Shown here one piece after another: positions 3,967 to 41,325 of a stretch of 64,000 bases of DNA. The first letter of the stretch is position 1. Each line of letters begins with the position of its first letter. The translations under genes and the position numbers were made by a program. Source of the DNA: Actinomycetes bacterium (GTDB lineage Bacteria; Actinomycetota; Acidimicrobiia; Acidimicrobiales; RAAP-2); the NCBI GenBank assembly GCA_021818265.1, contig JAKAEP010000003.1, positions 1 to 64,000 on the forward strand. Direction: 5' to 3'. The notes beneath the pieces were generated by a model. The model did no database searches and was not told the DNA's origin. It saw only the letters and a list, made by a program, of their open reading frames with translations.

Positions 3967-5030
3967 GCCGGGCCCACCGCGTCGATCAGCCGTCGGGCCG
4001 CCACCGGGGCCAGGGTCACGCCGTGGCGGTAGTGGCCCGACGACCACCACCAGCCGCCGCCGAGCTCGCGCAGGAAGGGGCGCAGGTCGCCGCTCGCCGG
4101 GCGCAGCCCGACGCGCGTCTCGATCAGGTCCGCCGTCTCGAGCTCGGGGATGACCTCGAGCCCGTCGCGCACGAGCCGCTGGAGCTCGCCGAGCTCCACG
4201 GCGCGCACCGGCGACTCCTCGGAGCTCGCGCCGAGCACGTTGTAGCGCTCGGCGCGCCCCACCGCGTAGAAGGGCCGCCCGTGGACGTAGGCGCGCACCA
4301 TCGGCAGGTGGTAGCGGTCGGGCCCCACCGCGCGCAGGGTCATCCCCCGCACCGGGCGCACCGAGGTCCCCTCGGGCGCCTCGAGGCCCCCCGGCAGCCC
4401 GGCCGAGCCCGTCGCGACCAGGCCGAGGTCGCCCTCGAGCGGGCCGTCGTCGGTCTCGGCGACGATTCGGGCGCCGTCGCTAGAGCAGCGTCGCACCCTC
4501 GTCGCGCGGTACTCGACCCCGAGCGCCTCGTTCGCGGCGCGCACCCGGGCCATCACCTCGTCGGGGTCGACCCAGGCGTCGCCCTCGACGAGGACGCCCT
4601 GGGTCACCCGCGCGCTCAGGCCCTCGAAGGGCGCGGGCTCCTCACGGCGGCTGAGCGCGCGCAGGGCGACGCCGTAACCGCGAGCGACGCCCGCGTACTG
4701 CTCCACGAGACGGCGGTCGCCGGCGTCGAGTCCGACCACGAGGGTGCCCACCCGGTGCAGGGCGATGGCCTCGCCGGTCGCCTCGGCCACCTCGTCGACG
4801 AGGTCGCGCCACGCGTCGAGCGCCGCTCGGTGCAGGCGGTGGTTCTCCTCCTCGCCCGGCGCGGCCTCGCCGCCCGGGGCGAGCATCCCCGCGGCCGCCA
4901 CGGTCGCCCCGCGGCCGGGGGAGGGGTCGACGACGCTCACTCGCCAGCGCGCGCGAGCCAGCGCGAGGGCGCTCACCTGGCCGATGACGCCGCCACCCAC
5001 CACGACGGCGCGCCGCGACGGACTGGTCAC
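3963..5030 (-). CDS. thiO: Glycine oxidase ThiO
   Basis: ThiO oxidises glycine to iminoglycine, the thiazole precursor in aerobic thiamine synthesis. The 355-residue protein has the N-terminal FAD fold (residues 8-17, AVVVGGGVIG), ATVAAAGMLAPG and the closing C-terminal motif GHYRHGVTLAPVAA, all typical of ThiO. It is followed immediately by thiS, which supports ThiO over a generic D-amino-acid oxidase. A TACGCT -10 box ends exactly 6 bases before the GTG start, so the mRNA is predicted to be leaderless and to lack a TPP riboswitch. Confidence 0.93.
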   Translation of the reverse strand: MTSPSRRAVVVGGGVIGQVSALALARARWRVSVVDPSPGRGATVAAAGMLAPGGEAAPGEEENHRLHRAALDAWRDLVDEVAEATGEAIALHRVGTLVVGLDAGDRRLVEQYAGVARGYGVALRALSRREEPAPFEGLSARVTQGVLVEGDAWVDPDEVMARVRAANEALGVEYRATRVRRCSSDGARIVAETDDGPLEGDLGLVATGSAGLPGGLEAPEGTSVRPVRGMTLRAVGPDRYHLPMVRAYVHGRPFYAVGRAERYNVLGASSEESPVRAVELGELQRLVRDGLEVIPELETADLIETRVGLRPASGDLRPFLRELGGGWWWSSGHYRHGVTLAPVAARRLIDAVGPA

Positions 5031-5036
5031 GTCCCC

Positions 5037-5042
5037 AGCGTA
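5037..5042 (-). promoter_or_regulatory. -10 box for thiO (predicted leaderless)
   Basis: TACGCT on the minus strand is followed by six bases and then the GTG of thiO, placing the predicted transcription start on the first base of the start codon. The short space to the divergent gltB leaves no room for a TPP riboswitch. Confidence 0.5.
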
Positions 5043-5083
5043 CGACCCTCGCGGGCGGCGACCGACCCGTCGCTAAGATGACG

Positions 5084-5089
5084 GCGGGT
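5084..5089 (+). promoter_or_regulatory. -10 box for gltB
   Basis: TAAGAT lies 24 bases before the preferred gltB ATG (5113) and predicts transcription from about base 5096. It is divergent from the thiO -10 box about 40 bases away. No clear -35 is visible. Confidence 0.4.
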
Positions 5090-5112
5090 CAGCGTTGCCC
5101 CGAGACGACGCC

Positions 5113-10972
<5,860 letters not shown>

Positions 10973-11014
10973 GGGTCCGCGGGCCGCTCGGTACTATCGA
11001 GGCAAGGGGGAACG

Positions 11015-12631: not shown

Positions 12632-12834
12632 TGGGTCCCTTCGACGAGCTGGCCGACGAGCTGGCCGCCCTGGAGGCGAGGGTGAACGACGTCATCTTCG
12701 ACGCCGTGCGCCACCAGATGCGCGACGGCGACGAGGAGGGCGCCCGCGACGCCGAGCGCGAGCTCGCCAAGGTCCGCCGCCACCTCGCCAAGGCGATCGC
12801 GATCCTGCGCCGCCACGAGGCCCTCGAGGACTAG
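12631..12834 (+). CDS. Small helical protein of unknown function (67 aa)
   Basis: GTG 12631 shares one base with the stop of the acyl-CoA ligase, suggesting coupled translation. The 67-residue product is highly charged and almost certainly all helix (DELADELAALEARVND, then RELAKVRRHLAKAIAILRRH), consistent with a coiled-coil or two-helix hairpin. I do not recognise a family. Its stop overlaps the convergent LOG-family gene's stop in the tetranucleotide CTAG. A role as a partner of the ligase is possible only by position. Confidence 0.72.
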   Translation: MGPFDELADELAALEARVNDVIFDAVRHQMRDGDEEGARDAERELAKVRRHLAKAIAILRRHEALED

Positions 12835-16082: not shown

Positions 16083-16088
16083 ATCCTA
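16083..16088 (-). promoter_or_regulatory. -10 box for fbiC (predicted leaderless)
   Basis: TAGGAT on the minus strand ends 7 bases before ATG 16075, placing the start codon at +2. It overlaps an alternative upstream ATG (16084) and argues against that start. Confidence 0.5.
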
Positions 16089-19212: not shown

Positions 19213-19218
19213 AGCGTA
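19213..19218 (-). promoter_or_regulatory. -10 box for tkt (predicted leaderless)
   Basis: TACGCT on the minus strand is followed by seven bases and ATG 19205, so the start codon is at +2. There is no Shine-Dalgarno sequence in the intervening bases. Confidence 0.45.
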
Positions 19219-19248: not shown

Positions 19249-19254
19249 TAACGT
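19249..19254 (+). promoter_or_regulatory. -10 box for the thioesterase gene (predicted leaderless)
   Basis: TAACGT ends exactly 6 bases before GTG 19261, putting transcription start on the start codon. No recognisable -35 hexamer is present. Confidence 0.45.
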
Positions 19255-19260
19255 TCCCGG

Positions 19261-19656
19261 GTGGCCTTCCAGGTGCCCCCCAACTGCGACCTGACCCTCG
19301 GGCTCACCTGCACCGACAAGTCCGTCCCGGGACGCACCGAGTGGGCCGTGACCCCCGACGAGCGCTTCGCCAATCCCGCGGGACTGGTCCAGGGTGGCTT
19401 CCTCGCGGCGATCATGGACTCGGCGATGGGCGCCTCGGCGGTCACGGCGCAGGGGGAGCGACGGGTGCTCGTCTCGAACACCGGGATGAAGGTGAGCTTC
19501 GTGCGCCCGGTGCGCCCCGGGGGGGCGTTGCGCTGCGTCGCCACCGTGCTCAAGTCCGGCCGCACGGTTGCCTTCGTCGAGGCCCGCCTGCGCGATGAGG
19601 GGGGTCGGCTGGTCGCCACCGCCAGCTCGACCTACGTGATCAGGGCCCGTGAGTAG
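19261..19656 (+). CDS. Hotdog-fold thioesterase (PaaI/4HBT family)
   Basis: The 131-residue protein matches the PaaI-type hotdog acyl-CoA thioesterases. NPAGLVQGGFLAAIMDSAMG gives the central helix with the conserved Gly-Gly and the acidic residue that positions water. VSFVRPVRPG and FVEARLRDEGGRLVATASSTY are the following strands. It would hydrolyse acyl- or arylacyl-CoA thioesters, perhaps rescuing CoA. Substrate is unknown. It diverges from tkt and precedes three small membrane proteins and trmI on the same strand. Confidence 0.85.
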   Translation: MAFQVPPNCDLTLGLTCTDKSVPGRTEWAVTPDERFANPAGLVQGGFLAAIMDSAMGASAVTAQGERRVLVSNTGMKVSFVRPVRPGGALRCVATVLKSGRTVAFVEARLRDEGGRLVATASSTYVIRARE

Positions 19657-19659
19657 GCT
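19654..19659 (+). promoter_or_regulatory. -10 box inside the end of the thioesterase gene (predicted leaderless)
   Basis: TAGGCT overlaps the thioesterase stop codon and ends 6 bases before ATG 19666, predicting a leaderless internal promoter for the downstream genes through trmI. Confidence 0.4.
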
Positions 19660-21877: not shown

Positions 21878-21905
21878 TTGACAGCGCCGGGCTCTCCCCT
21901 AGGGT
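21878..21905 (+). promoter_or_regulatory. Promoter of the mpa (arc) operon, leaderless
   Basis: A consensus -35 hexamer TTGACA (21878-21883) and TAGGGT -10 (21900-21905) are separated by 16 bases. The -10 ends exactly 6 bases before ATG 21912, so the predicted transcript starts on the start codon. This is the best-formed promoter I find in the window. Confidence 0.65.
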
Positions 21906-23646: not shown

Positions 23647-25134
23647 GTGGCCATCCCCAAAGTCGTCGGCATCGAGACCGAGTACGGCGTCGCCGGCGGA
23701 CCCGACGGGGACCCGATCACCGCGTCAAGCCTGATCGTCAACGCCTACGCCCAGCAGGGTCGCACCCACATCAACTGGGACTTCGAGGGCGAGACGCCCG
23801 ACCTCGACGCCCGGGGGCGGGTGGACCTGACCTCGTTCGCGCCGATCGTCGAGACCCACCTGGCGAACACCGTGCTCACCAACGGCGCCCGGCTCTACGT
23901 CGACCACGCCCACCCCGAGTACTCGGCGCCCGAGTGCGCCTCGCCCTTCGAGGCCACCCTCTACGACCAGGCCGGCGAGGAGGTGATGCGCCGGGCCCTC
24001 ACGATCGCGAACGACACCCTCGGCCCCGACGCGGCCGTCACCCTCTACAAGAACAACTCCGACGGCAAGGGCAACTCCTACGGCACCCACGAGAACTACC
24101 TCGTCGCGCGCGAGGTCGAGTTCGCCCACCTCGTGCGCACCCTGGTACCCCACCTCGTCTCGCGCCAGGTGGTGGTGGGCGCCGGCAAGGTGGGGGCCGA
24201 GACCGAGGCGGCCCTCGAGCACGACCCGCCCTTCCAGCTCTCCCAGCGCGCCGAGTTCTTCGAGGAGGTCGTGGGCCTCGAGACCACCCTCAAGCGCCCG
24301 ATCGTGAACACCCGGGACGAGCCCCACAGCGACGCCGAGCGGTTCCGGCGGCTCCACGTCATCATCGGGGACGCCAACCTGAGCCCGGTCGCCACCGTGG
24401 TGAAGCTGGGCTCCACGGCGCTGCTCCTCGCCGCGCTCGAGGACCTCGGCCCCGCGCTGTTCCCGGCGCCCCCGGTCGCGCCCGTGTCGGCGGTGCGCCG
24501 CTTCGCCCTGGATCTCACCCTCGCCCAGGGCGTCGAGTGCGACGACGGGGTCACCCGCAGCGCCTGGGACTTCCAGGACGCGCTGTGGCGCCTGGCCGAG
24601 CTCTACGTCGAGCGGACCGGGGGAGGGGTTGTCGGCCCCTCCGACCAGGTCCGCTTCGTGCTCGACCAGTGGCGCGCGATGCTCGACGGGGTCCGCGACG
24701 ACCGCGAAGCGGTGGCCGACCGCGTCGACTGGGTAGCCAAATGGCGGGTCGTGAACGGCTACCGGGACCGCTACGGGCTCGACCCGGGCGACGCCCGCTT
24801 GAAGGCCATCGACCTGCAGTACCACGACGTGCGCGCGTCCCACTCGCTCGCCCGCCGCGTGGGGCTGCGGCCGCTCTTCGATGAGCCCGCCATTCGTGAA
24901 GCCGTTCACAACCCTCCCGACTCGACGCGGGCCTACTTCCGCGGTCGCTGCGTGGAGCGCTACCCCGACGAGATCGTCGCGGCCAACTGGGACTCGGTCG
25001 TGTTCGACCTCGGCGACGGCCCGCTCCAGCGGGTGCCCATGCTCGACCCGTTGAGGGGTACCCGCGCCCTGACCGAGGAGTTGCTAGAAACGAGTGCATC
25101 GGCCGCCGATCTCCTGACGGCCCTGGACAGGTAG
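23647..25134 (+). CDS. dop: Depupylase/Pup deamidase Dop
   Basis: Dop converts the C-terminal Gln of Pup to Glu and also removes Pup from substrates. The 495-residue protein belongs to the carboxylate-amine ligase fold shared with PafA. GIETEYGVAGG gives the N-terminal catalytic/metal segment and GKGNSYGTHENYL the ATP-binding core, with VNTRDEPHSDAERFRRLHV typical of the family. The extended N-terminal loop (GPDGDPITASSLIVNAY) marks Dop rather than PafA. GTG 23647 lies 4 bases after the mpa stop, and pup follows 9 bases after dop, which supports the assignment. Confidence 0.96.
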   Translation: MAIPKVVGIETEYGVAGGPDGDPITASSLIVNAYAQQGRTHINWDFEGETPDLDARGRVDLTSFAPIVETHLANTVLTNGARLYVDHAHPEYSAPECASPFEATLYDQAGEEVMRRALTIANDTLGPDAAVTLYKNNSDGKGNSYGTHENYLVAREVEFAHLVRTLVPHLVSRQVVVGAGKVGAETEAALEHDPPFQLSQRAEFFEEVVGLETTLKRPIVNTRDEPHSDAERFRRLHVIIGDANLSPVATVVKLGSTALLLAALEDLGPALFPAPPVAPVSAVRRFALDLTLAQGVECDDGVTRSAWDFQDALWRLAELYVERTGGGVVGPSDQVRFVLDQWRAMLDGVRDDREAVADRVDWVAKWRVVNGYRDRYGLDPGDARLKAIDLQYHDVRASHSLARRVGLRPLFDEPAIREAVHNPPDSTRAYFRGRCVERYPDEIVAANWDSVVFDLGDGPLQRVPMLDPLRGTRALTEELLETSASAADLLTALDR

Positions 25135-28203: not shown

Positions 28204-28209
28204 GTACAA
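28204..28209 (+). promoter_or_regulatory. -10 box for tatA (predicted leaderless)
   Basis: TACAAT ends 7 bases before ATG 28217, placing the start codon at +2. This suggests that tatA-tatC-helicase can be transcribed separately from the proteasome genes. Confidence 0.5.
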
Positions 28210-28216
28210 TGGCCCC

Positions 28217-29350: not shown

Positions 29351-31482
29351 CCGACTTCCGCACCCACTTCGTCGAGGGGCTCGGCTTCGGCCTCGACGAC
29401 TTCCAGGTGGCCGCGCTCGACGCCCTCGACACCGGGGCCACCGTGCTCGTGAGCGCCCCGACCGGCTCCGGCAAGACCCTCGTGGCCAACTACGCCATCG
29501 GTCAGGAGCTGGCGCGCCAGCGGCGCTCGTTCTACACCACGCCGCTGAAGGCCCTGTCGAACCAGAAGTACCACGAGCTCGGGCGGCTCTTCGGCCGTGA
29601 CGCCGTGGGGCTGCTCACCGGCGACGTCTCGGTCAACCGCGACGCCGCGGTCGTCGTCATGACGACCGAGGTGCTGCGCAACATGCTGCTCACCGACTCC
29701 GAGCAGCTCGCCGACCTCGGCCTCGTCGTCCTCGACGAGGTCCACTACCTCCAGGACCCCTTCCGGGGCGGGGTCTGGGAGGAGGTGATCATCCTGACCC
29801 CACCCGAGGTCCGCTTCGTCGCCCTGTCGGCGACGATCGGCAACGCGCCGGCGCTGGGGGAGTGGCTCGGCGAGGTGCGCGGCGCCACCCGGGTCGTCGT
29901 CGAGACCGAGCGCCCGATCGCCCTGCACCAGCACGTCGCCCTGGTCCGGCGGGGGCAGACCCAGGCGGAGGTGCTCGACCTGATCGACGAGGGCCGCTTC
30001 GCCGAGGGGGCCCGCCGGGTGGACAACGCGCTGCGGGCCACGCGCAAGTTCCGCCCCGGGCCGCGCTGGCACGGGCCCCGCTCCTCGGCGCCCCCGCCGC
30101 CCTTCCGGGCGCCGCGGCGCTCGGAGCTGATGCGCGCCCTCGAGGGCGAGGACCTGTTGCCGGTGATCGTCTTCATCTTCTCGCGCGCGGCCTGTGACGA
30201 CGCCGTCCACCAGCTGCGCCGCGACGGCCTGCGCTTCACCAGCCACGAGGAGAGCCGGCGCATCGAGGCCATCGCCGAGGCGCGCCTGGCCGAGTTCAGC
30301 GACGAGGACCTCGCGGCCCTCGAGTACGGGGAGTTCCTCGACGCCCTCAGTCGCGGGATCACCAGCCACCACGCGGGAATGGTGCCGGCCTTCCGCGAGA
30401 TCGTGGAGGCCTGCTTCGAAGAGGACCTCCTGGCCGTCGTCTTCGCCACCGAGACCCTGGCCCTCGGCATCAACATGCCGGCGCGCACGGTGGCGATCGA
30501 GCGGTTCTCCAAGTACTCCGACGCCGGTCGCCAGTTCCTCACGAGCGCCGAGTACTCCCAGATGACCGGCCGCGCCGGGCGCCGCGGTCTCGACGAGGAG
30601 GGCCACGCGGTGGTCTGCTTCGCCACCGACCTCTCCCTCGCGGACGTGGCCCGGGTGGCGCTCGCGCCGCCCGGCGAGCTGCACTCCTCGTTCCGACCGA
30701 CCTACAACCTCACGGCCAACCTGGTCGACCACTTTGACCGCGACACGGCCCTCGAGGTCGTGCGGCGTAGCTACGCCCAGTTCGAGAACGTGCGCCGGCC
30801 CGCGGGGCGCCGCCGGCCCCTCGACGAGATGCTGGCGGCCCGGCACGCGGTGCTGTGCGACCTCGGCTACGCGGAGGGCTGGGCGCTGACCGAGGCGGGC
30901 CAACTCCTGCGCTCGCTCTACCACGAGTGCGACCTGCTCATCGCCGAGACCATCGCGGCCGGGCTGCTCGACGGGCTCGAGCCCGCGCCCCTCGCGGGGG
31001 TGCTGAGCTGCTTCAGCTACGAGGGGCGTCGCGCACCCCGGGCCCACAGCGCGGCCAAGGGCGTCGCCTCGAAGAACCGGCGCTCGACCCACGACCGGCT
31101 CGGCCCCGTCCGGCGCAACGCGATGGCCGAGCGCCTCCGCGAGGTCCAGGCGCTCTACGCCGCGACCTGCGCCGCCGAGGACCATCACGGCGTGCCCCAC
31201 GCCAAGGAGCCCGACGGCGCGTTCGCCACGGTCATCGCCGCCTGGGCGCGGGGCGTCGCCCTCGGCCCGGTGCTCGACCTGGCCGACGCCGAGCTGGGCC
31301 ACACCTCGCCCGGGGACTTCGTGCGCCAGGCCAAGCAGGTCGCCGACCTCTGCGAGCAGATCGCCCGTCTGGGCGACCTGGGGCCTCTGGCCCGGACCGC
31401 TGCCGAGGCCCGCGAGGCGCTGGTGCGCAGCGTCGTGGCCGGCGCCGCCAGCGTCCACCCCTACCGAGACGACGGGCTCTAG
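29347..31482 (+). CDS. Ski2/Mtr4-like DEVH-box RNA helicase (HelY-like)
   Basis: The 711-residue protein is an SF2 helicase of the Ski2-like group. Walker A APTGSGKT spans residues 37-44, DEVH 130-133, followed by SATIGN and QMTGRAGRRGLDEEG. A DSHCT-like C-terminal helical region is visible (LDEMLAARHAVLCDLGYAEG onward). It probably unwinds structured RNA during decay or processing. Its place after tatC matches helY in Mycobacterium (about 906 residues), but this protein is about 200 residues shorter and has no room for the arch domain between the winged helix and the C-terminal bundle. A proline/arginine insert lies near residues 235-258. Confidence 0.9.
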   Translation: MTDFRTHFVEGLGFGLDDFQVAALDALDTGATVLVSAPTGSGKTLVANYAIGQELARQRRSFYTTPLKALSNQKYHELGRLFGRDAVGLLTGDVSVNRDAAVVVMTTEVLRNMLLTDSEQLADLGLVVLDEVHYLQDPFRGGVWEEVIILTPPEVRFVALSATIGNAPALGEWLGEVRGATRVVVETERPIALHQHVALVRRGQTQAEVLDLIDEGRFAEGARRVDNALRATRKFRPGPRWHGPRSSAPPPPFRAPRRSELMRALEGEDLLPVIVFIFSRAACDDAVHQLRRDGLRFTSHEESRRIEAIAEARLAEFSDEDLAALEYGEFLDALSRGITSHHAGMVPAFREIVEACFEEDLLAVVFATETLALGINMPARTVAIERFSKYSDAGRQFLTSAEYSQMTGRAGRRGLDEEGHAVVCFATDLSLADVARVALAPPGELHSSFRPTYNLTANLVDHFDRDTALEVVRRSYAQFENVRRPAGRRRPLDEMLAARHAVLCDLGYAEGWALTEAGQLLRSLYHECDLLIAETIAAGLLDGLEPAPLAGVLSCFSYEGRRAPRAHSAAKGVASKNRRSTHDRLGPVRRNAMAERLREVQALYAATCAAEDHHGVPHAKEPDGAFATVIAAWARGVALGPVLDLADAELGHTSPGDFVRQAKQVADLCEQIARLGDLGPLARTAAEAREALVRSVVAGAASVHPYRDDGL

Positions 31483-31494
31483 TCTCGGTAGCCC

Positions 31495-33099
31495 ATGCAC
31501 CCCTACGTCGTCGAGGAGTTCTCCGAGGACGAGCGCGCGGTGCTGCGCCGCTACTTCACCAACCTCGACGGCCCGGTGTTCGCCCTGGTCAACTTGCCCG
31601 AGGTCGTCAAGGGGGCCCTCTTCGCTCGCTACTCGCGCTCCTCTAAGAGCCTCCGTCGGCTCTTCTTGGACGAGTTCGTCGGCGACCTCGACCTCACCGG
31701 CGACGCGACGGTGGACGCGACGGTGGGCCTCGCGCGCGCCGACGAGCTCTACCAGCGGATCTTCGTGGAGTACGGTGACGACTCGGTGGCCCAGCTCGGC
31801 GGGGTGCACCTGGCCTGCGAGCAGGCGAGCAACCTGCTCACCAAGGTCCTCGAGCACGGCCGGCTGATGAGCTACCTCGAGCAGTCGACGCGCTACATCG
31901 GCTACAATCGGCGCCTCGCCAACGGCCACTACCGCTTCTACCGCGACCACGACCTGCTGGAGTCGCGCCTGGGCGCGCGCTACGTCGGCGAGATGGACCG
32001 GATGTTCGACACCTACCGCGAGCTCCTGCCCCGACTGACCGACTGGCTGGCCCGCCGCTACCCCAAGACGGCCGAGGACACCGACTTCGTCTACCGCCAG
32101 GCGATCCGGGCCAAGGCCCTCGACGGCCTCCGGGGGCTGCTGCCGGCGAGCGCGCTGTCCAACCTCGGGATCTACGCCTCGGGCCAGGCCTACGAGATGC
32201 TCCTGCTGCGCATGCGCGCGAGCGCCCTGCCCGAGGCGCGCCTGTACGCCGAGCTGATGCGCGACGAGCTCGAGAAGGTCATCCCCTCGTTCCTGCGCCG
32301 TCTCGACGTGCCCGACCGCGGGGGGGCGTGGGTGGAGTACCTCGAAGGGGCGCAGGCCGCCAGCGCCGCCGCGGTCGCCGGCCTGGGCCCGGACGAGCCG
32401 ATCGAGGGCGAGGACGCCGTGCGCCTCGTCGCGTTCGACCCGGCCGGGGAGGACCGCGTCCTCGAGGCGATCGTCTTCGAGCGCTCGCGGACGACCCACG
32501 CCGAGGCGGCCGCCCGGGTCGCCCGACTGGACGGGGCCGCGCGCGACGCGCTCTTCGACGCCTACGTGGGGGAGCGCCGCAACCGCCGCCACCGACCGGG
32601 CCGGGCCTTCGAGCGGACCGACTACCGCTTCGAGGTCGTGAGCGACTACGGGGCCTTCCGCGACCTCCAGCGCCACCGCCTGCTCACCATCGAGTGGCAG
32701 GACCTCGGGGTCGACCTCGGCTACGCCGTGCCCGAGGTCGTCGTCGAGGCCGGGCTCGAAGAGCCGTACCGCCAGAGCCTGGACCGCTCGGGCGAGCTCT
32801 ACGAGGCGGTGGCGACCGAACTGCCCGAGCAGGCCGGCTACTGCGTGGCCCTGGCCTTTCGGATCCGCTACGCGATGCAGATGAACGCGCGCGAGGCGAT
32901 GCACGTCATCGAGCTGCGCTCGGGCCCCCAGGGCCACCCCAGTTACCGCCGCGTAGCCCAGGAGATGGGCCGGCTCATCGCCGACCAGGCCGGACACACC
33001 CGGATCGCCCGGGCCATGCGCTTCGTCGACTACGGCGACGTCGACCTCGAGCGACTCGAGGCCGAGCGGGCCGCCGAGCGCAACCGCGCCGCCCGCTAG
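31495..33099 (+). CDS. Duplicated ThyX-like protein (FAD-dependent thymidylate synthase family)
   Basis: The 534-residue protein consists of two ThyX-related halves. The N-terminal half has GALFARYSRSSKSLRRLFLD, YGDDSVAQLGGVHLACEQAS and MSYLEQSTRYIGYN. The C-terminal half has the best match to the flavin-binding motif, RDLQRHRLLTIEWQDLG (R393-H394-R395), and ELRSGPQGHPSYRRVAQEM. Classical ThyX is about 220-250 residues and uses RHRxxSxNxxSxR, which neither half carries intact. It may be a diverged FAD or nucleotide-binding enzyme rather than a thymidylate synthase. TAGTCT at 31480-31485 is a candidate -10 with a 3-base leader. Activity is uncertain. Confidence 0.8.
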   Translation: MHPYVVEEFSEDERAVLRRYFTNLDGPVFALVNLPEVVKGALFARYSRSSKSLRRLFLDEFVGDLDLTGDATVDATVGLARADELYQRIFVEYGDDSVAQLGGVHLACEQASNLLTKVLEHGRLMSYLEQSTRYIGYNRRLANGHYRFYRDHDLLESRLGARYVGEMDRMFDTYRELLPRLTDWLARRYPKTAEDTDFVYRQAIRAKALDGLRGLLPASALSNLGIYASGQAYEMLLLRMRASALPEARLYAELMRDELEKVIPSFLRRLDVPDRGGAWVEYLEGAQAASAAAVAGLGPDEPIEGEDAVRLVAFDPAGEDRVLEAIVFERSRTTHAEAAARVARLDGAARDALFDAYVGERRNRRHRPGRAFERTDYRFEVVSDYGAFRDLQRHRLLTIEWQDLGVDLGYAVPEVVVEAGLEEPYRQSLDRSGELYEAVATELPEQAGYCVALAFRIRYAMQMNAREAMHVIELRSGPQGHPSYRRVAQEMGRLIADQAGHTRIARAMRFVDYGDVDLERLEAERAAERNRAAR

Positions 33100-33708: not shown

Positions 33709-33711
33709 CGG

Positions 33712-34131
33712 GTGCCGGTCCTCGTCCGCCCCGCCACGCCGCTCGACGCCGACGCACTGGCCGGGCTCTGGGGCGACGCCGCGCGGGAGTGCGCGCAACA
33801 CCGCGGCGGGAGGGCGCTCCTCGAGGACCTGCTCGCCGGCCGCGACGACGCGGGCGCGCTGCGCGACGCCCTCGCCGCCGGCGAACTGGTCGTCGTGCTC
33901 GAGGGGGAGGTGCCGGTGGGCTTCGCGTGGCGGCGCGGCGCGCTCATCGCGGCGCTCTACGTCGCCCGGGGGCAGCGCCGACGCGGGCACGCCCGCTCGC
34001 TGGTCGCCGGGCTGCTCGCGGACCCTCACCCGCCGACCGATGGCTACGCCCTCCCGGGCGACCGCGCGACGAAGTCGCTCTACGAGTCGATCGGCTGGAA
34101 GGCCCGGCTGCTCACGATGCGCGCCGGCTGA
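33712..34131 (+). CDS. GNAT-family N-acetyltransferase
   Basis: The 139-residue protein has the GNAT fold: LVRPATPLDADALAGLW as the first helix, the beta-4/acetyl-CoA segment AALYVARGQRRRGHARSLV (a Q/RxxGxA-type loop) and the last element ATKSLYESIGWKARLLTM. The acceptor is unknown. GTG 33712 follows the DUF4193 stop by 3 bases. Its last 20 bases overlap the convergent repeat-protein gene. Confidence 0.82.
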   Translation: MPVLVRPATPLDADALAGLWGDAARECAQHRGGRALLEDLLAGRDDAGALRDALAAGELVVVLEGEVPVGFAWRRGALIAALYVARGQRRRGHARSLVAGLLADPHPPTDGYALPGDRATKSLYESIGWKARLLTMRAG

Positions 34132-35389
34132 CCGGACGGCGCACGTTCTTCGCCGGCGGCGGGGGCGGTGGGACCTTCATGCCGAGCAGCTTGGCCAGCT
34201 CGGGGATCGCCCCGGCGTTGTGGACCGCGACGGCACGGCTGGCCTCGTCGTCGGGAATGCCCGACGGCTTCACGTTTCGCCGGATAGACGTGTCGACCGC
34301 CAGCTCCACGACGGCGCGCCACTTCTCCGGCTCCTGATCGGCACGGAGGAACTCAGAGGTCAGCGCGACGACCTTCGCGGCCACCTCGGCGCTCACGCGC
34401 GTCGACACGTCCGGGGGCCGGCCCACGAGGGTCAGCGCCTCGGCCACGTCTCCCGCGCCGATGGCCTTGTCGAGCCTCTCGCTCCACTGCACCCGCAGTG
34501 CCTCCACGCGCTCGTGCAGGGCGCCCTGGAGTTCCTTGAGCTGGGCGCGCGCCTCGTCGTCGAGCGAGACCGTCTTGGCCGAGGTGACGATCGCGCGCAG
34601 GTCGCGCAGGCGCAGCTCCTTGCCGGCGCCGATGCCGCCGGCCGCGCGGTCTTTCCACGTCGCCAGGTTCGTCCGGGCGAGCAGGTCCTCGGCGATGCGC
34701 TCGATCGTGGCCGGGTCGACCGTGGGACGTCCCTGAGCCGACGCGTTCTGGTTCTGGGTCTCGACGGCCGCCCGCACCGAGGGCATCCCGCCGCGCAGGA
34801 GCTGCTCGGCGACGGGCAGCTGCTCGGGCGAGAGGGTCGCCAGCAGCGCGTTGCGGTGCGTCGTCGTCATGGGCGGGGCGACGGGCCCGCGGCGCTCGGG
34901 GCGCCCCTCCCGGGGACGTCCGCCCTCGGGTCGGGGGGAGCGCGCCGGGCGGTCGCCGGGCCGTCGGGCCGAGCGCTCGCCCTCGCGGCGGGGTCCGCGC
35001 TCGCCCTCGCGGCGGGGTCCGCGCTCGCCCTCGCGGCGGGGCCCGCGCTCGCCCTCGCGACGGGGTCCGCGCTCGCCCTCGCGGCGGGGCCCCCGGCCCT
35101 TGGGCGCGTAGGTGACCGTCACGTCCGGGCCCTTGGCCTCCCGGGCGATGAGCTCGAGCTTCTCGTGGCGGGGGTCGAGCGGTGACGCCGTCTTGGGCGG
35201 GGCGACCGACAGCACCTCGAAGCCCTCCATGAACTGCTCGACGTCGGCACGGTAGACGCTCCCGACCACCGGGCCGCCCGGCACGAGCGAGGCGGCGACG
35301 ACACCCTTGGGCAGCTTGGCGCCGGCGGCGCGCCACGTGGCGACCTCGCCGCTCAGGCTGGTGATTTCGATGTCGATCCGCCGAGACAT
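34112..35389 (-). CDS. Uncharacterised protein with arginine-rich GPRREGER repeats
   Basis: The 425-residue protein has three parts. A conserved-looking N-terminal domain (residues 1-95, starting MSRRIDIEITSLSGE and containing YRADVEQFMEGFEVLSV) is followed by a disordered segment of about 80 residues with five tandem copies of GPRREGER. A helical C-terminal domain of about 250 residues ends in a proline/basic tail. The arginine-glycine repeat resembles RNA- or ribosome-binding tails. I do not recognise a named family, though the plan suggests a nucleic-acid-associated protein. TAGTGT at 35399-35404 predicts a leader of about 3 bases. It diverges from the HtrA-like gene. Confidence 0.75.
   Translation of the reverse strand: MSRRIDIEITSLSGEVATWRAAGAKLPKGVVAASLVPGGPVVGSVYRADVEQFMEGFEVLSVAPPKTASPLDPRHEKLELIAREAKGPDVTVTYAPKGRGPRREGERGPRREGERGPRREGERGPRREGERGPRREGERSARRPGDRPARSPRPEGGRPREGRPERRGPVAPPMTTTHRNALLATLSPEQLPVAEQLLRGGMPSVRAAVETQNQNASAQGRPTVDPATIERIAEDLLARTNLATWKDRAAGGIGAGKELRLRDLRAIVTSAKTVSLDDEARAQLKELQGALHERVEALRVQWSERLDKAIGAGDVAEALTLVGRPPDVSTRVSAEVAAKVVALTSEFLRADQEPEKWRAVVELAVDTSIRRNVKPSGIPDDEASRAVAVHNAGAIPELAKLLGMKVPPPPPPAKNVRRPVSRRAS
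34973..35092. repeat. Five in-frame 24-base tandem repeats
   Basis: Five consecutive 24-base units with only a few base differences encode the GPRREGER octapeptide on the minus strand. Because the unit is a multiple of three, copy number can change without breaking the frame. Confidence 0.92.
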
Positions 35390-35462
35390 AGGTCATCAAC
35401 ACTACTCGGTCACCGGAAACGCCACGGTCGCTGGTCCCTAGTCGTCTCTTAGATTCGCCCCC

Positions 35463-35468
35463 TAGCAT
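35463..35468 (+). promoter_or_regulatory. -10 box for the HtrA-like gene (predicted leaderless)
   Basis: TAGCAT ends exactly 6 bases before GTG 35475, so transcription is predicted to begin on the start codon. A GGTCCCTA half site lies about 30 bases upstream. Confidence 0.45.
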
Positions 35469-35474
35469 GGGCCG

Positions 35475-36848
<1,374 letters not shown>

Positions 36849-36861
36849 CCGGAGGGGTCCC

Positions 36862-37629
36862 TCAGCGCAGCGTCGCGATCCCGCCGTCCACCGGCAGGAT
36901 CGCCCCGGTGACGTAGGCGGCGGCGGGGGAGGCGAGGAAGATCGCGGCCCCGGCCATGTCCGCGGGACGTCCGATGCGCCTCATCGGGGCGGCGGCGGCG
37001 ATCTCGTCGCCGAACGCCTCCAGGGTGGCGTGCATCATCTTCGACTCGAAGGGGCCCGGCGCGATGGCGTTCACCGTCACCCTCGGAGCGAGGTACTTCG
37101 CGAGGTGGCGCGTCAGCTGGTGCACCGCGGCCTTGGAGGCCGAGTACGCGTAGGTCTCCATGGCCGGGACCCGCAGCCCGTCGATCGAGCCGATGTTGAT
37201 GACCCGGGCGGGGGAGTCGGCCGTGCCCGAGGCCTCGAGGAGCGGGCGCAGGAACTTGGTGAGATGGAAGACGCCCTTCACGTTCAAAGAGAGGACCCGC
37301 TCGAAGGCTGCCTCGTCGTAGTCGGCCATCGGGGCGCCCCAGGTCGCCCCGGCGTTGTTCACGAGGACGTCGAGGCGCGACTCGCGAGCGGCGACCTCCT
37401 CGGCCAGGACGCGACAGCCCGATTCGGTGCTCAGGTTCGCCTCGAGGAACGTGCAGGGGCCGAGCGCGCCGAGCTCGGCGGCCAGGGCGTCACCCACCTC
37501 GGCCTTGCGCGAGGAGATGTACACCGAGGCCCCGGCCTCGAGGAAGCCCCGGGCGATCATCTCGCCGATGCCCCGCGTCCCTCCGGTCACCAGGACCGTC
37601 TTGCCGCTCACGTCGAAGAGTCCGCTCAT
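36862..37629 (-). CDS. SDR-family oxidoreductase (FabG-like)
   Basis: This 255-residue classical short-chain dehydrogenase has the nucleotide-binding TGGTRGIG, NNAG, and the catalytic Ser/Tyr/Lys set (INIGS, then YAYSASK). The C-terminus ends in the family's VDGG. The cofactor loop (SSRKAEVGDAL) suggests NADP(H). Similar proteins reduce 3-oxoacyl thioesters or oxidise alcohols; substrate is unknown. TACACT just upstream supports ATG 37629. Confidence 0.9.
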   Translation of the reverse strand: MSGLFDVSGKTVLVTGGTRGIGEMIARGFLEAGASVYISSRKAEVGDALAAELGALGPCTFLEANLSTESGCRVLAEEVAARESRLDVLVNNAGATWGAPMADYDEAAFERVLSLNVKGVFHLTKFLRPLLEASGTADSPARVINIGSIDGLRVPAMETYAYSASKAAVHQLTRHLAKYLAPRVTVNAIAPGPFESKMMHATLEAFGDEIAAAAPMRRIGRPADMAGAAIFLASPAAAYVTGAILPVDGGIATLR

Positions 37630-37636
37630 CGGGCGA

Positions 37637-37642
37637 AGTGTA
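37637..37642 (-). promoter_or_regulatory. -10 box for the SDR gene (predicted leaderless)
   Basis: TACACT on the minus strand is followed by seven bases and ATG 37629, so the start codon is at +2. Confidence 0.5.
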
Positions 37643-37674
37643 GACGTGGTCCCCCGGCGGGGAAGTGGTCTCCC

Positions 37675-38088
37675 CTAGTTCGAGACGCGCAGCACCGTCT
37701 GGGAGACGACCGCCACGGCGTCGTGGGTCGTCGGCGCCCACTCCGCCCGGATCCGCCACACGCCCGTGGCGGTGAAGTTGAAGGCGCACTCCGCCTGGCC
37801 CTGGCGCACGGCCTGGAAGCCGCAGACCAGGTTCGAGCTCGTCGAGTCCGCCGGGGCGATGGCCACCATCCTCACGACGCCGCCCGCGCCGCTCGTGAGC
37901 GACAGGACGTCCGCGGTGATGTTGAAGCCGTTGTGCGAGACGCTCGCCGGCTGGCTGTTGTCGCTGAAGTCGAAGGCCAGGATCACCGGCGCGTCCGCGG
38001 CCGAGTGGGCCGCCTGGGCGCCGGCCGTGCCGCCCATCAGGCCGAGCGGGGCCAGGGCCAACAGGGTCGCAACGACCATCCGACGCAT
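37675..38088 (-). CDS. Small secreted protein of unknown function
   Basis: The 137-residue product begins with a signal peptide (MRRMVVATLLALAPLGLMGG, then TAGAQA-AHS as cleavage region). The mature part is about 110 residues, apparently all beta, with two cysteines (LVCGFQAV and AECAFNF) that could form a disulfide. FTATGVWRIRAEW looks like an Ig-like or beta-sandwich strand pair. No family recognised. I chose ATG 38088 because TATCAT ends exactly 6 bases upstream; the longer start at 38121 lies before that -10. Confidence 0.75.
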   Translation of the reverse strand: MRRMVVATLLALAPLGLMGGTAGAQAAHSAADAPVILAFDFSDNSQPASVSHNGFNITADVLSLTSGAGGVVRMVAIAPADSTSSNLVCGFQAVRQGQAECAFNFTATGVWRIRAEWAPTTHDAVAVVSQTVLRVSN

Positions 38089-38094
38089 GGCCGG

Positions 38095-38100
38095 ATGATA
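38095..38100 (-). promoter_or_regulatory. -10 box for the secreted protein gene (predicted leaderless)
   Basis: TATCAT on the minus strand ends 6 bases before ATG 38088, placing transcription start on the start codon. The rest of the gap to 38222 is locally AT-rich (near 38126-38148), with TAGCGT at 38209-38214 as a candidate -10 for crcB. Confidence 0.5.
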
Positions 38101-38222
38101 CCAGGGGTTCCGCCACGTCACGCCGATAATAGACGTTATGTAAATTTCGCTCGACAGACCAGCCCGGCCCCGCTCGTCCCCGTCCCCGTCCCCCTCTTTA
38201 GTGCTCGGTAGCGTCTAGCCCC

Positions 38223-38675
38223 GTGCACCCCCACGTCACGCTGTCGCCGCGACGCCTCGTGGTGACGCTCCTGGGGACGCTTGTGGCCGGTGCGGCGGGC
38301 ACGCTGATCCGCTACGGGCTCACGGGCCTGGACCGCCTGCCGTCGGACACGCTGGCCTCGACCACCTGGACCCAGCTGATCCCGTGGTGGCTGCTAGCGA
38401 TCAACGCCCTCGGCGCGGGCGTCGCCGCCTTCGCCCTGTGGGGCCCGCTGCGCCGCCACGACCCCAACGACCTCACGCGCGTCCTGCTCGTCACGGGCTT
38501 CCTCGGCGGGCTCACCTCGTACTCCACGCTCTACCAGGACCTCGGGAACCTCTGGCACGTCTCGACCGGCGGCGGGCTGCTCGTGAGCCTCGTCGCGCTG
38601 CTCAGCGGCTTCGCCTTCGCCGGGGGCGGGATCCGGGTCGCTCGTCGCTGGAGCCGCGGACGGGGCCACCCGTGA
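38223..38675 (+). CDS. crcB: Fluoride exporter CrcB/Fluc subunit 1
   Basis: Fluc channels export fluoride as dual-topology dimers. This 150-residue protein has four hydrophobic segments and the family motif GFLGGLTSYST, plus NALGAG. Compared with the second copy, it has a longer N-terminus and TSYST in place of TTFSS. Two adjacent crcB genes usually encode an antiparallel heterodimer. I see no crcB-type fluoride riboswitch upstream. Confidence 0.92.
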   Translation: MHPHVTLSPRRLVVTLLGTLVAGAAGTLIRYGLTGLDRLPSDTLASTTWTQLIPWWLLAINALGAGVAAFALWGPLRRHDPNDLTRVLLVTGFLGGLTSYSTLYQDLGNLWHVSTGGGLLVSLVALLSGFAFAGGGIRVARRWSRGRGHP

Positions 38676-39031
38676 CCGTCGTACTCGTCGGGCTCTTCGG
38701 CGGGATCGGCGCCGTCGTGCGCTACCTGGCCGAGTACGCCGTGCGCGCGCGCCACCCGAGGGACCGTCCCTGGGCGACCGTCGCGGTGAACGCGCTGGGC
38801 TGTGGCGTCGCCGCCTTCGTGGGCTACCGGTTCTCCGGCGCCCTCGACGAGCACCTGCGCGACGTGGCCATCACCGGGTTCTGTGGCGGCCTGACCACCT
38901 TCTCGTCGGCCTTCGCCGTGCCCGCGGTCCTCCAGCGCGAGCACCACTGGGGGTACTCGGCGGCCCTCCTCGTCTCGACCCCGCTCGCGTGCCTCGCGCT
39001 CTACCAGCTCGGGATGGTCCTCGCGCGCTGA
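38672..39031 (+). CDS. crcB: Fluoride exporter CrcB/Fluc subunit 2
   Basis: The 119-residue second Fluc subunit has the canonical GFCGGLTTFSSAFAV pore motif, the N-terminal GGIGAVVRYL and VNALGCG. Its GTG overlaps the first crcB's stop (GTGA), which suits equal expression of a heterodimer. Its stop codon abuts the convergent permease gene's stop with no bases between. Confidence 0.94.
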   Translation: MTVVLVGLFGGIGAVVRYLAEYAVRARHPRDRPWATVAVNALGCGVAAFVGYRFSGALDEHLRDVAITGFCGGLTTFSSAFAVPAVLQREHHWGYSAALLVSTPLACLALYQLGMVLAR

Positions 39032-40510
39032 TCAGATCTTTAGCGGGCCCTGCTCCGACTCGGCCAGGCCCGAGAAGTCGGCGCTCCCGCGCGGCGAGCT
39101 CGGCATCACCGCCGCCGCGATGAGCCCGACCACCAGGATCACCACCGCGGTCCAGGGCGCCCAGATCGTGGGCGCGGTGACCTTGTAGATGGCCCCGTAG
39201 AGGGCGGCCGCGGTCACGAGGGCCCCGGCCAGGCAGGCCAGGGTCAGCTGAACGGACTTGCCGCTCGCCCGAAGGCCCCGCACGGCCCCCACCGCGATCA
39301 AGAGGTAGATCACCGCGATCGCGAAGCCCCCAAAGGTCGACATCCACGAGAACATCGAGACGTACTCGGGGGTCTGGGGCAGCGCGAACGCGCTCGACCA
39401 CACCGCGAGCACGATCACGACGGCGTAGGCGAACAGCACGAACAGGGTCGACCCGAGGGGGGTGCCGTGGCGCGAGATCGAGGTGAGCGGGCGGGGCATC
39501 TTGCCATCGCGCGCCAGGGCGAAGAAGCCCCGCGACCCCGATACCGCGCAGCCGATCAGCACCGCGATCATGTCGAAGACGACCACGAGCTCGACCAGGC
39601 GGCGGATCCCCACGCCCGCGAATCCTCCCGCGGCCTTCGGCCCGGCCAGGGTGAACAACGGCGCCCCGGCGTTCTTGCCGATCGCGGAGAGGCTGAAGTG
39701 GAACCCGGCCACCTGCGCGAACGAGCCGATCACGTAGAAGCCGGCGATCACGAGCACCGAGGTGAGCACGGCGCGCGGGATGTTGTGCTCGGGCCGCTCG
39801 GTCTCCTCGGCCAGGTTGGCCGAGGTCTCGAAGCCCGTGAACAGCAAGACCCCGTAGAGGACGCCGAAGAGGATGCCCGTCCAGTGCGTCGGTGAGCCGC
39901 TCGGCGAGAAGCCCGAGGCGACGTGGTGCAGACCGCCGCTCTTGATGATGACGAAGACCGAGTAGACGAGCACAACCGACACCGAGATGGCCGCGAGGGT
40001 CAGCTGGACGCGGGTCGACAGGGCGACCCCGAGGTAGATGATCGACCCCACCAGGAGGAACAACAGGACGTCCCAGGCCCAGTACGGCAGCGGCGTCGCG
40101 TTGAACTCCCCCTGGATCGTGTCGTGGATGACCCCGCCGATCATCGGCAGGATCCCCGCGCCGAGCGCCAGGATGCCCGCGTAGTAGAGCCAGCCGGCCG
40201 CCGAGCCCACCCGGCCGCCCAGGCCGTCGGTCACGTAGTCGTAGAGCGAGCCCGCGGCCTGGATCTTGCGGGTGTACTCGGCGATGATCCAGCCCAGGCC
40301 GAGCACGCCCACGGCCGCGATCACCACCGCGAGCGGCGCCGCCGTCCCGGCGCCCTTGCCCGAGGCGCTCACGATGCCCACGACCAGGGGCACGAGGAAC
40401 GCGATCGAGAACACCGGCCCCATCAGTCCCACCGACTGGGCCACCGTGTCGATGAGGGTCAGCCGGCGCTTGCCGCCGAGCTCGGTCCGTTTCGTCGTCT
40501 CCGACGCCAT
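39032..40510 (-). CDS. APC-family amino acid/amine permease
   Basis: The 492-residue membrane protein has about 12 hydrophobic helices and the APC start LTLIDTVAQSVGLMGPVFS with the unwound first helix. QAAGSLYDYVTDGLGGRVG and LFTGFETSANLAEETERPEH are typical amino-acid/polyamine permease segments. It follows the PuuD-like gene on the same strand, suggesting import of the amine or gamma-glutamyl compound processed there. A perfect 16-base inverted repeat lies 34-49 bases upstream of ATG 40510, and AAGGGGGAG is the ribosome-binding site. Substrate is not predictable. Confidence 0.9.
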   Translation of the reverse strand: MASETTKRTELGGKRRLTLIDTVAQSVGLMGPVFSIAFLVPLVVGIVSASGKGAGTAAPLAVVIAAVGVLGLGWIIAEYTRKIQAAGSLYDYVTDGLGGRVGSAAGWLYYAGILALGAGILPMIGGVIHDTIQGEFNATPLPYWAWDVLLFLLVGSIIYLGVALSTRVQLTLAAISVSVVLVYSVFVIIKSGGLHHVASGFSPSGSPTHWTGILFGVLYGVLLFTGFETSANLAEETERPEHNIPRAVLTSVLVIAGFYVIGSFAQVAGFHFSLSAIGKNAGAPLFTLAGPKAAGGFAGVGIRRLVELVVVFDMIAVLIGCAVSGSRGFFALARDGKMPRPLTSISRHGTPLGSTLFVLFAYAVVIVLAVWSSAFALPQTPEYVSMFSWMSTFGGFAIAVIYLLIAVGAVRGLRASGKSVQLTLACLAGALVTAAALYGAIYKVTAPTIWAPWTAVVILVVGLIAAAVMPSSPRGSADFSGLAESEQGPLKI

Positions 40511-40543
40511 CGCTCCCCCTTGGCGGCGCGCCCCCCGGCTCGC

Positions 40544-40559
40544 ACGTTCGCACGAACGT
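40544..40559. promoter_or_regulatory. Perfect inverted repeat operator before the permease gene
   Basis: ACGTTCG-CA-CGAACGT has perfect 7-base arms. It sits between the PuuD-like gene and the permease gene, just downstream of a minus-strand TTGACC that could be a -35. This is the size and form of a TetR/GntR-type operator. Confidence 0.55.
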
Positions 40560-40587
40560 AAGGGGTCAAACGACCGATGTCAAGGCA

Positions 40588-41313
40588 CTACCTGAGACGA
40601 CGCTGTGCCTCGGACACCACCCACCGGAACGCCGAGTCGGGCGCGTCGAGGAGCTCGGGGTGCCACTGGACGGCGAGGACGTCCCCGTCGGCGCTCTCGA
40701 GCCCCTCGACGACGCCGTCGGGCGCCTTCGCCGAAACGACGAGTCCCTCCCCCACCCGGTCGACCACCTGGTGGTGGAGCGAGTTCACCGCGAGCGCCGA
40801 GGGATAGAGCTCGGCCAGGCGGGTGCCCTCCACGACCGAGACGTCGTGGGTCCGCCGGCGGCCGTCGCTCTCAAAGCGAGGGTGGCCCACCCCTTCGGTG
40901 GACGGCACGTCCTGGACGAGGGTCCCCCCACGGGCGACGTTCACGAGCTGGAGTCCTCGACAGATGGCGAGCACCGGGATCCCCCGGCGCTGGGCCGCCT
41001 CGAAGAGGGCGAGCTCCCACGCGTCGCGATCGGGCTCCACGTCGCCGAGTCCCGGCTCCGGAGCGGCCCCGTAGCGACTCGGCTCTATGTCCGCGCCGCC
41101 CGAGAGCACCAGCCCGTCCAGGCGGGCGGCGACCTCGTCGACGTCGGCGTCGCGCGACAGCTCGACGGGGACGCCCCCGGCCAGGGCGATCGAACGGGTG
41201 TAGTCCGAGAAGTGCAGGTCGAAGGTGAGCCCGTGCATCGCCGGGGGCAGGTGGTCCCCGAGGAAGGAGGCGGGCCAGCGCCGGCCCGTCACGCCGATGA
41301 GCGGACGACTCAT
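40588..41313 (-). CDS. Class I glutamine amidotransferase-like hydrolase (PuuD/peptidase C26)
   Basis: The 241-residue protein is close to gamma-glutamyl-GABA hydrolase. The nucleophile C118 lies in LAICRGLQLVNVARGG, and the His/Glu pair in VQWHPE near the C-terminus. LSGGADIEPSRYG and the NSLHHQVVD motif are typical of PuuD. It would release glutamate from a gamma-glutamyl conjugate. TACACT ending 6 bases before ATG 41313 supports this start over upstream ones. The permease gene follows on the same strand. Confidence 0.88.
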   Translation of the reverse strand: MSRPLIGVTGRRWPASFLGDHLPPAMHGLTFDLHFSDYTRSIALAGGVPVELSRDADVDEVAARLDGLVLSGGADIEPSRYGAAPEPGLGDVEPDRDAWELALFEAAQRRGIPVLAICRGLQLVNVARGGTLVQDVPSTEGVGHPRFESDGRRRTHDVSVVEGTRLAELYPSALAVNSLHHQVVDRVGEGLVVSAKAPDGVVEGLESADGDVLAVQWHPELLDAPDSAFRWVVSEAQRRLR

Positions 41314-41319
41314 CCAGCC

Positions 41320-41325
41320 AGTGTA
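41320..41325 (-). promoter_or_regulatory. -10 box for the PuuD-like gene (predicted leaderless)
   Basis: TACACT on the minus strand, six bases, then ATG 41313. Transcription is predicted to start on the A of the start codon. Confidence 0.5.

What the first reader, a model, noticed from the sequence alone, without database searches (positions are those of the whole stretch)
5030..41325. Many genes look leaderless: TAnnnT ends 6-7 bases before the start codon
The sequence shows TAnnnT followed by exactly 6 bases and then the start codon for thiO (5030), the thioesterase (19261), the 2-TM protein (19666), mpa (21912), the HtrA-like protease (35475), the secreted protein (38088) and the PuuD-like gene (41313). 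Seven bases separate them for fbiC (16075), tkt (19205), tatA (28217) and the SDR (37629). Since a -10 box sits 7-12 bases before transcription start, the start codon would be at +1 or +2. These genes lack a Shine-Dalgarno sequence, while neighbours such as the glutamine-synthetase-like gene and the DUF4193 gene have strong ones. Leaderless mRNAs are known to be common in actinobacteria. The run here is unusually regular and sets several start sites (fbiC, secreted protein, PuuD-like).
Basis: partly seen in the sequence, partly recalled or inferred. Interest (0 to 1): 0.75.

Follow-up and report, generated by a model that had tools for sequence, protein, structure and literature searches.

The report
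Leaderless genes with fused stop-promoter junctions
In this uncultured actinobacterium a TAnnnT box stands 6-9 bases, most often exactly six, before the start codon of about a fifth of the sampled genes, so those genes likely make messenger RNAs that begin at or within a few bases of the start codon, a habit already known in actinobacteria; in some tightly packed gene pairs the stop codon of one gene is at the same time the beginning of the box of the next.

Summary
All 11 listed starts carry TAnnnT 6 or 7 bases upstream (tatA is 6, not 7); these are the only TAnnnT-N6/7-RTG sites among 3113 RTG triplets in the window. In 832 kb of the genome, 776 genes called without upstream signals show 105, 23, 13 and 13 boxes at spacings 6-9, against 2.8 per position elsewhere. 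Without gene calls, the genome has 197 TAGnnT-N6-RTG and 7 TAGnnT-N5-RTG. Box and Shine-Dalgarno core exclude each other (2 genes with both, 29.8 expected). A twofold excess of N6 over N5 is found in 41 of 60 genomes of the class; mpa keeps the box in all 10 close relatives with a usable start. Best reading: sigma70-type -10 boxes that start transcription on the start codon, giving leaderless mRNAs, well known in actinobacteria. Transcription starts are inferred; no RNA data were available.

The parts
5037..5042 (-). TACGCT box, 6 bases before thiO GTG (5030)
   Evidence: start supported by the DAO domain from residue 8
19249..19254 (+). TAACGT box, 6 bases before the 4HBT thioesterase GTG (19261)
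   Evidence: Pfam 4HBT; box at spacing 6-7 in 7 of 13 orthologs
19654..19659 (+). TAGGCT box, 6 bases before the 2-TM gene ATG (19666); its first three bases are the TAG stop codon (19654-19656) of the thioesterase: fused stop/-10 junction
   Evidence: box at spacing 6-9 in 7 of 23 orthologs, fused in 3 of 23
21900..21905 (+). TAGGGT box, 6 bases before mpa ATG (21912)
   Evidence: same box and spacing in 10 of 10 relatives with 82-88% identity and a usable start (2 more close loci have none); in all 77 orthologs box 16, SD 33, neither 28
35463..35468 (+). TAGCAT box, 6 bases before the HtrA-like protease GTG (35475)
   Evidence: Trypsin_2 and PDZ
38095..38100 (-). TATCAT box, 6 bases before the secreted-protein ATG (38088)
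   Evidence: my codon-bias caller chose 38079; no Pfam match
41320..41325 (-). TACACT box, 6 bases before the PuuD-like (Peptidase_C26) ATG (41313)
16083..16088 (-). TAGGAT box, 7 bases before the fbiC ATG (16075)
   Evidence: box at spacing 6-8 in 4 of 11 orthologs
19213..19218 (-). TACGCT box, 7 bases before tkt ATG (19205); divergent from the thioesterase, 55 bases between the two genes
   Evidence: Transketolase; box at spacing 6-8 in 17 of 24 orthologs, spacing 7 in 11
28205..28210 (+). TACAAT box, 6 bases (not 7) before tatA ATG (28217)
   Evidence: box at spacing 6-9 in 9 of 11 orthologs
37637..37642 (-). TACACT box, 7 bases before the SDR ATG (37629)
31480..31485 (+).
   Evidence: spacing 9 in 8 of 11 orthologs, fused in 5 of 11
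38209..38214 (+).
35399..35404 (-).
60441..60446 (+). TACCCT box, 9 bases before the ATG at 60456 (MarR family), lying inside the upstream gene, which overlaps by 4 nt; weak candidate

Best explanation
A TAnnnT box ends 6 (less often 7-9) bases before the start codon of 154 of 776 sampled genes and is predicted to be the -10 element of a sigma70-type RNA polymerase, so that transcription would begin on, or within three bases of, the start codon and the mRNAs would be leaderless. With T at -7 and six bases between, the A or G of ATG/GTG falls on the usual +1. Ribosomes would then start on the 5'-terminal RTG without a Shine-Dalgarno sequence, as reported from experiments in mycobacteria. The genome thus appears to use three kinds of start: leaderless, SD-led, and coupled restarts at 4-nt and 1-nt overlaps. 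Because such a gene needs no leader, its promoter can sit in very little space, and in 14 of 41 box genes that follow another gene on the same strand by 5-39 bases the TA of the box is the TA of the upstream TAG/TAA stop codon. There, one run of 15-18 bases ends one gene, would promote the next and starts the next. Shown: box, spacing, SD exclusion, conservation, stop overlap. Inferred: promoter function, transcription start, leaderless translation, independent transcription of the fused tandem genes.
For: Peak at spacing 6 in genes called without upstream signals: 105/23/13/13 at 6/7/8/9 against 2.8 per position; shuffle and internal-RTG controls on the first 589-gene set. Whole genome without gene calls: TAGnnT-N6-RTG 197, N7 86, N5 7. 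SD core and box together in 2 genes, 29.8 expected. Start codons of the 154 box genes: 94 GTG, 60 ATG, 0 TTG; of the other 622: 379, 231, 12. Column frequencies show no other strong signal before the start in 80 spacing-6 genes. Class-wide: 41 of 60 genomes have spacing-6 counts at least twice spacing-5 counts. Orthologs keep box and spacing while flanks diverge: mpa 10 of 10 close relatives with a usable start, tkt 17 of 24, tatA 9 of 11, thyX 9 of 11 at spacing 8-9. Fused junctions: 14 of 41, 2.2 expected from the gaps of other tandem genes; T as third base after a TAR stop in 14 of 25 at gap 9-12 against 10 of 79 at gap 13-80 (p 3e-5); in relatives 25 of 46 against 13 of 93, orthologous junctions counted repeatedly. 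Published precedent: TANNNT with 22-26% leaderless genes in M. tuberculosis (passages of PMC3898074); 5'-terminal ATG/GTG necessary and sufficient in mycobacteria (passages of PMC4633059); TA-led genes concentrated in Actinobacteria (passages of PMC3160421).
Against: No transcription start is mapped. Boxes at spacing 8-9 (26 of 154) could give leaders of 2-3 nt. About 11 of the 154 boxes are expected by chance (2.8 per position over four positions). 19 of 60 class genomes do not show the twofold excess: 12 of family f36 and 7 others. Samples of four genomes from elsewhere in the phylum (77-93 genes each) show a weak peak or none. mpa itself has the box in only 16 of 77 orthologs. My caller misplaced some starts (thiO, glutamine synthetase, DUF4193, probably fbiC and the secreted protein), so single calls are not proof. 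Fused junctions: 0 in the 140-kb sample of the congener G111, which has no tandem pair at gap 9-12; at gap 9-12 with a TAR stop 0 of 4 in G016, 1 of 2 in G031, 0 of 1 in G011 and in G027. Because TA is rare at 73% GC, a stop codon is also the cheapest source of TA, so fusion may be opportunism without selection.
Confidence: 0.87

Rival explanations
1. The boxes are -10 elements, but transcription starts a few bases further upstream or at several positions, giving short leaders of 1-5 nt and not strictly leaderless mRNAs.
For: 26 of 154 boxes stand at spacing 8-9, and for thyX spacing 9 is conserved in 8 of 11 orthologs.
Against: The dominant spacing is exactly 6 (105 of 154), which puts the purine of RTG on +1; SD cores are all but absent from these genes.
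Confidence: 0.15
2. The tandem genes with boxes are read mainly as part of the upstream gene's transcript; the box is a weak internal promoter and the gene is translated by coupling to the upstream stop codon.
For: Fused junctions leave only 9-12 nt between stop and start, a distance at which re-initiation is conceivable; 247 of 776 genes follow a same-strand neighbour at gap 4 or less, 180 of them by overlaps of 4 or 1 nt.
Against: Tandem genes at gap 4 or less, where coupling is expected, carry the box in only 9 of 247 cases, against 41 of 117 at gaps 5-39.
Confidence: 0.2
3. The boxes are read by an alternative sigma factor, so the leaderless set would be a regulon and not general housekeeping.
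For: Three Sigma70_r1_2 matches exist in the genome.
Against: The set is large and includes ordinary enzymes (transketolase, thyX, fbiC) and the proteasomal ATPase; TANNNT is the commonest -10 in M. tuberculosis (73% of primary starts, passages).
Confidence: 0.08
4. The regularity is chance, or an artefact of choosing starts to fit the motif.
Against: Starts called from coding statistics alone show the peak, and the gene-free count is 197 against 7.
Confidence: 0.01

Closest known systems
TA-led (leaderless) genes of Actinobacteria and Deinococcus-Thermus, Zheng et al. 2011 (PMC3160421; passages seen)
   Same: TAnnnT pattern in high-GC genomes just upstream of the start codon, as a class apart from SD-led genes; most notable in Actinobacteria.
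   [quoted passage not shown] Here closely spaced tandem genes (gap 5-39) carry the box in 41 of 117 cases, about as often as divergent genes (88 of 260), sometimes with the stop codon as part of the box.
M. tuberculosis leaderless transcriptome, Cortes et al. 2013 (PMC3898074; passages seen)
   Same: TANNNT -10 without a conserved -35; about a quarter of genes with a primary start are leaderless.
   Different: Experimentally mapped there, sequence inference here; 'stop codon' has 0 occurrences in its main text, so no overlap of box and stop codon is described in those words.
Leaderless translation in mycobacteria, Shell et al. 2015 (PMC4633059; abstract part and passages seen)
   Same: ATG or GTG at the 5' end suffices; no other codon does. 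Here 0 of 154 box genes start with TTG.
   Different: Done in mycobacteria; nothing tested in this organism or its class here.
Genomes predicted by GeneMarkS-2 to use leaderless transcription (described in passages of PMC9581028)
   [quoted passage not shown] high-GC Actinobacteria are named.
   Different: The class Acidimicrobiia is not discussed in the passages seen.

Membership tests
Actinobacterial leaderless genes | TAnnnT -10 box placed so that +1 falls on the start codon | tested here: met
   (placement of the box; +1 itself inferred)
Actinobacterial leaderless genes | No Shine-Dalgarno sequence before these starts | tested here: met
   2 genes with both, 29.8 expected; 0 of the 11 listed starts; four SD pentamers tested
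Actinobacterial leaderless genes | Start codon ATG or GTG only | tested here: met
   154 of 154 box genes are RTG; 12 of 622 others are TTG, so the contrast is weak
Actinobacterial leaderless genes | Weak or no -35 element | tested here: inconclusive
   only a mild excess of G at -33/-32 (57% and 47%) in 80 spacing-6 genes
Actinobacterial leaderless genes | First gene of its transcript | tested here: inconclusive
   divergent genes 88 of 260, tandem gap 5-39 41 of 117, tandem gap 40 or more 15 of 146, tandem gap 4 or less 9 of 247, stretch edges 1 of 6; transcripts unknown
Actinobacterial leaderless genes | mRNA 5' end mapped to the start codon | not testable with these tools
   needs RNA from the organism
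Actinobacterial leaderless genes | Ribosome starts on the 5'-terminal codon | not testable with these tools
   needs ribosome profiling or reporters

The most novel reading that the evidence does not exclude
In Acidimicrobiia the stop codon of one gene doubles as the TA of the -10 box of the next gene, forming a 15-18-base stop-promoter-start module (TAR-nnT-N6..9-RTG). Runs of genes that look like operons by spacing are then chains of separately transcribed leaderless genes, and this module is kept by selection.
Probability: 0.45. Interest if true: 0.55.

Novelty: new member of a known kind. Interest (0 to 1): 0.36.

Why it matters
It extends leaderless initiation, mapped in mycobacteria, streptomycetes, corynebacteria and others (titles and abstract starts listed), to the largely uncultured Acidimicrobiia, with a sharp sequence rule that annotators could use to set start codons. 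The fused stop/-10 junctions, if they work as inferred, show that short gaps between tandem genes need not mean an operon, and that a promoter can be fitted into a stop codon. The change of mpa from box to SD between near and far relatives makes gain and loss of leaders testable.

Tried and rejected
The backward-read pattern that the genome search prints as a control was rejected: in most other genomes it exceeds the pattern itself (e.g. G031 338 against 118), so spacing 5 was used as control; in this genome the backward control gave 26 against 197 at spacing 6 and 39 against 7 at spacing 5. A three-class EM (none / leaderless / SD) gave a leaderless weight of 0.25, but the freely fitted model also gave 0.11 on shuffled and 0.28 on internal-RTG sequences, so no fraction from it is used. 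In one search the gene caller failed for the 18 loci below 58% GC (2 genes); it was changed. A special spacing for divergent leaderless pairs was looked for: 20 of 132 divergent pairs have both boxes, 15.3 expected, no sharp spacing. A general link of TAG usage to promoters was not supported: TAG is also frequent at convergent ends. Chance and start-choice artefact were rejected. Rows dropped before counts: 863 genes were called, 787 had a complete 5' end and 100 nt upstream, 776 remained after near-duplicate removal; orthologs with under 60% coverage or no usable start were dropped. In one search the sixth protein was an out-of-frame ORF by my mistake; the secreted protein itself was scanned (no match). 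Print searches for a stop codon serving as -10 of a leaderless gene (open-licence PMC only) found no such description: searches were seen as listings only, and one search's single paper concerns a start codon overlapping a stop codon (passages). Leaderless genes in Acidimicrobiia: 2 papers hold both words; in the passages seen of one the class appears only in a table of anti-SD types; of the other only the listing was seen.

Full report
What the window is. The window is the first 64 kb of contig C48 of a 1.95-Mb, 137-contig genome (91% complete); it is 72.5% G+C. The best 80 of 587 relatives of its Mpa protein lie in records mostly named Acidimicrobiaceae, Acidimicrobiales, Acidimicrobiia or simply actinobacteria, with a few odd labels (Acidobacteria, Bifidobacterium breve), so I take it as a member of the Acidimicrobiia.

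The listed sites. All 11 TAnnnT boxes are there; tatA's spacing is 6, not 7. None has one of the four SD pentamers tested. Four more window genes have the box at spacing 8-9 (thyX 31495, crcB 38223, the gene starting at 35389, and 60456). The SD contrast holds in the main: glutamine synthetase has GAGGAGG before 56339, DUF4193 a weaker AGAGAGGA before 33220.

Genome test. I wrote a gene caller that uses only coding statistics and start-codon preference. On 617 kb it gave 589 usable genes with 80 boxes at spacing 6; shuffled upstream regions gave 1.5 on average and 6 at most over 200 shuffles, and 0 of 1466 internal RTG codons had the box there. On 832 kb and 776 genes the counts are 105, 23, 13, 13 for spacings 6-9 and 2.8 per position elsewhere. 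With no gene calls at all, the complete genome has 197 TAGnnT-N6-RTG, 86 with N7 and 7 with N5. The box and an SD core exclude each other (2 against 29.8 expected). By context, the box at 6-9 is found before 88 of 260 divergent genes, 41 of 117 tandem genes at gap 5-39, 15 of 146 at gap 40 or more, 9 of 247 at gap 4 or less and 1 of 6 at stretch edges. The caller has errors: thiO, glutamine synthetase and DUF4193 starts were misplaced; such errors blur the peak but cannot make it.

Relatives. In 80 loci around mpa from named relatives (1162 genes) the counts are 103, 72, 39, 39 for spacings 6-9, and the peak is seen in all six G+C classes. Samples of G031 (same order, 163 genes: 8, 9, 3, 3) and G016 (IMCC26256, 167 genes: 11, 9, 3, 0) show it too. 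In 60 genomes of the class, 41 have at least twice as many N6 as N5 sites; the 19 others are 12 of one small-genome family, f36, and 7 more. This genome has the highest N6:N5 ratio (28). After subtracting N5, it prefers 6 over 7 by 2.4 and its two family members by 3.35 and 1.98 (ranks 3, 1 and 5 of 41); the 38 passing genomes of other families lie between 0.53 and 2.46, 28 of them above 1. So the preference is strong here but not unique. Samples from four genomes elsewhere in the phylum show a weak peak or none (77-93 genes each).

Single genes. mpa has TAGGGT at spacing 6 in 10 of 10 relatives with 82-88% identity and a usable start (L032 and L035 have none), while over all 77 orthologs the box is found in 16, an SD core in 33, neither in 28. 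tkt keeps the box in 17 of 24 orthologs, tatA in 9 of 11, thyX in 9 of 11 (8 of them at spacing 9). Two Pup-ligase-family genes at 23647 and 26818 have no box here but have it in 32 of 73 and 33 of 54 orthologs. The state therefore changes between orthologs.

Fused stop/-10 junctions. In the window the TAG stop of the thioesterase (19654-19656) is the start of TAGGCT before the 2-TM gene, and the TAG stop of the helicase gene (31480-31482) is the start of TAGTCT before thyX. In the sampled genome 14 of 41 tandem box genes at gap 5-39 are built so; 2.2 would be expected if their gaps were like those of other tandem genes. At gap 9-12, 14 of 25 TAR stops have T as third following base, against 10 of 79 at gap 13-80 and 0 of 14 at gap 5-8 (p 3e-5 for the first contrast); for TGA stops it is 1 of 3 and 5 of 60. 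Gap 9 is in excess (12 pairs, neighbours' mean 3.7). In relatives the contrast is 25 of 46 against 13 of 93, with some orthologous junctions repeated, e.g. thyX fused in 5 of 11. Against generality: no fused case, and no pair at gap 9-12, in 140 kb of the congener G111; 0 of 4 TAR-stop pairs in G016, 1 of 2 in G031.

Mechanism. TAnnnT with T at -7 puts +1 on the purine of RTG. Published work shows TANNNT as the -10 of M. tuberculosis and 5'-terminal ATG/GTG as sufficient for translation in mycobacteria (passages of PMC3898074 and PMC4633059). I infer the same here. Tandem genes with a box at short gaps are then likely to have their own transcripts, unlike what close spacing suggests; this is untested. 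The -35 region shows only a mild G excess at -33/-32.

Verdict. Observation confirmed, interpretation supported, phenomenon known for actinobacteria. New here are the class-wide count, the strong preference for spacing 6 and the fused stop/-10 junctions, for which I found no description.

Noticed in passing
window 12831-12834 and 45383-45386; own sample: Convergent gene pairs often share their stop codons: 54 of 133 convergent pairs in 832 kb overlap by exactly 4 bases, 52 of them as the palindrome CTAG (TAG on both strands), although CTAG is rare in the genome (observed/expected 0.32). In the congener G111 8 of 21 convergent pairs overlap by 4, with TTAA, TTAG, CTAG and CTAA twice each. Elsewhere: 5 of 12 in close relatives' loci, 1 of 16 and 5 of 67 in farther ones, 0 of 25 in G031, 2 of 23 in G016, 4 of 8 in G011, none in G023 (13 pairs), G050 (10) and G027 (8).
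   Followed up: partly
L124 and L128 (own genome C41, C45): Divergent pairs only 19 and 28 bases apart, each with a box for both genes, whose two boxes overlap on opposite strands (in L128 both use one GCTAGC).
   Followed up: partly
window 31480-31495 (thyX): Box-to-start spacing of 9, not 6, is conserved in 8 of 11 orthologs, which suggests either a 2-3 nt leader or a fixed unusual start distance.
   Followed up: no
window 21912 (mpa) and orthologs: Close relatives have the box, farther ones mostly an SD core or neither: an apparent gain or loss of a leader within the class.
   Followed up: partly
own genome: TAG is used nearly as often as TGA as a stop codon (267 TAG, 301 TGA, 26 TAA of 594 genes), against 11 TAG of 154 in G031.
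   Followed up: partly
L023 and L132 (C20, C50): Near-identical stretches on two contigs: the assembly holds some near-duplicate or strain-variant pieces; near-duplicate gene starts were removed before the counts.
   Followed up: partly
class family f36 (12 genomes of about 1 Mb): These small genomes show no twofold excess of spacing 6 over 5; whether leaderless starts are lost or hidden by base composition was not examined.
   Followed up: no
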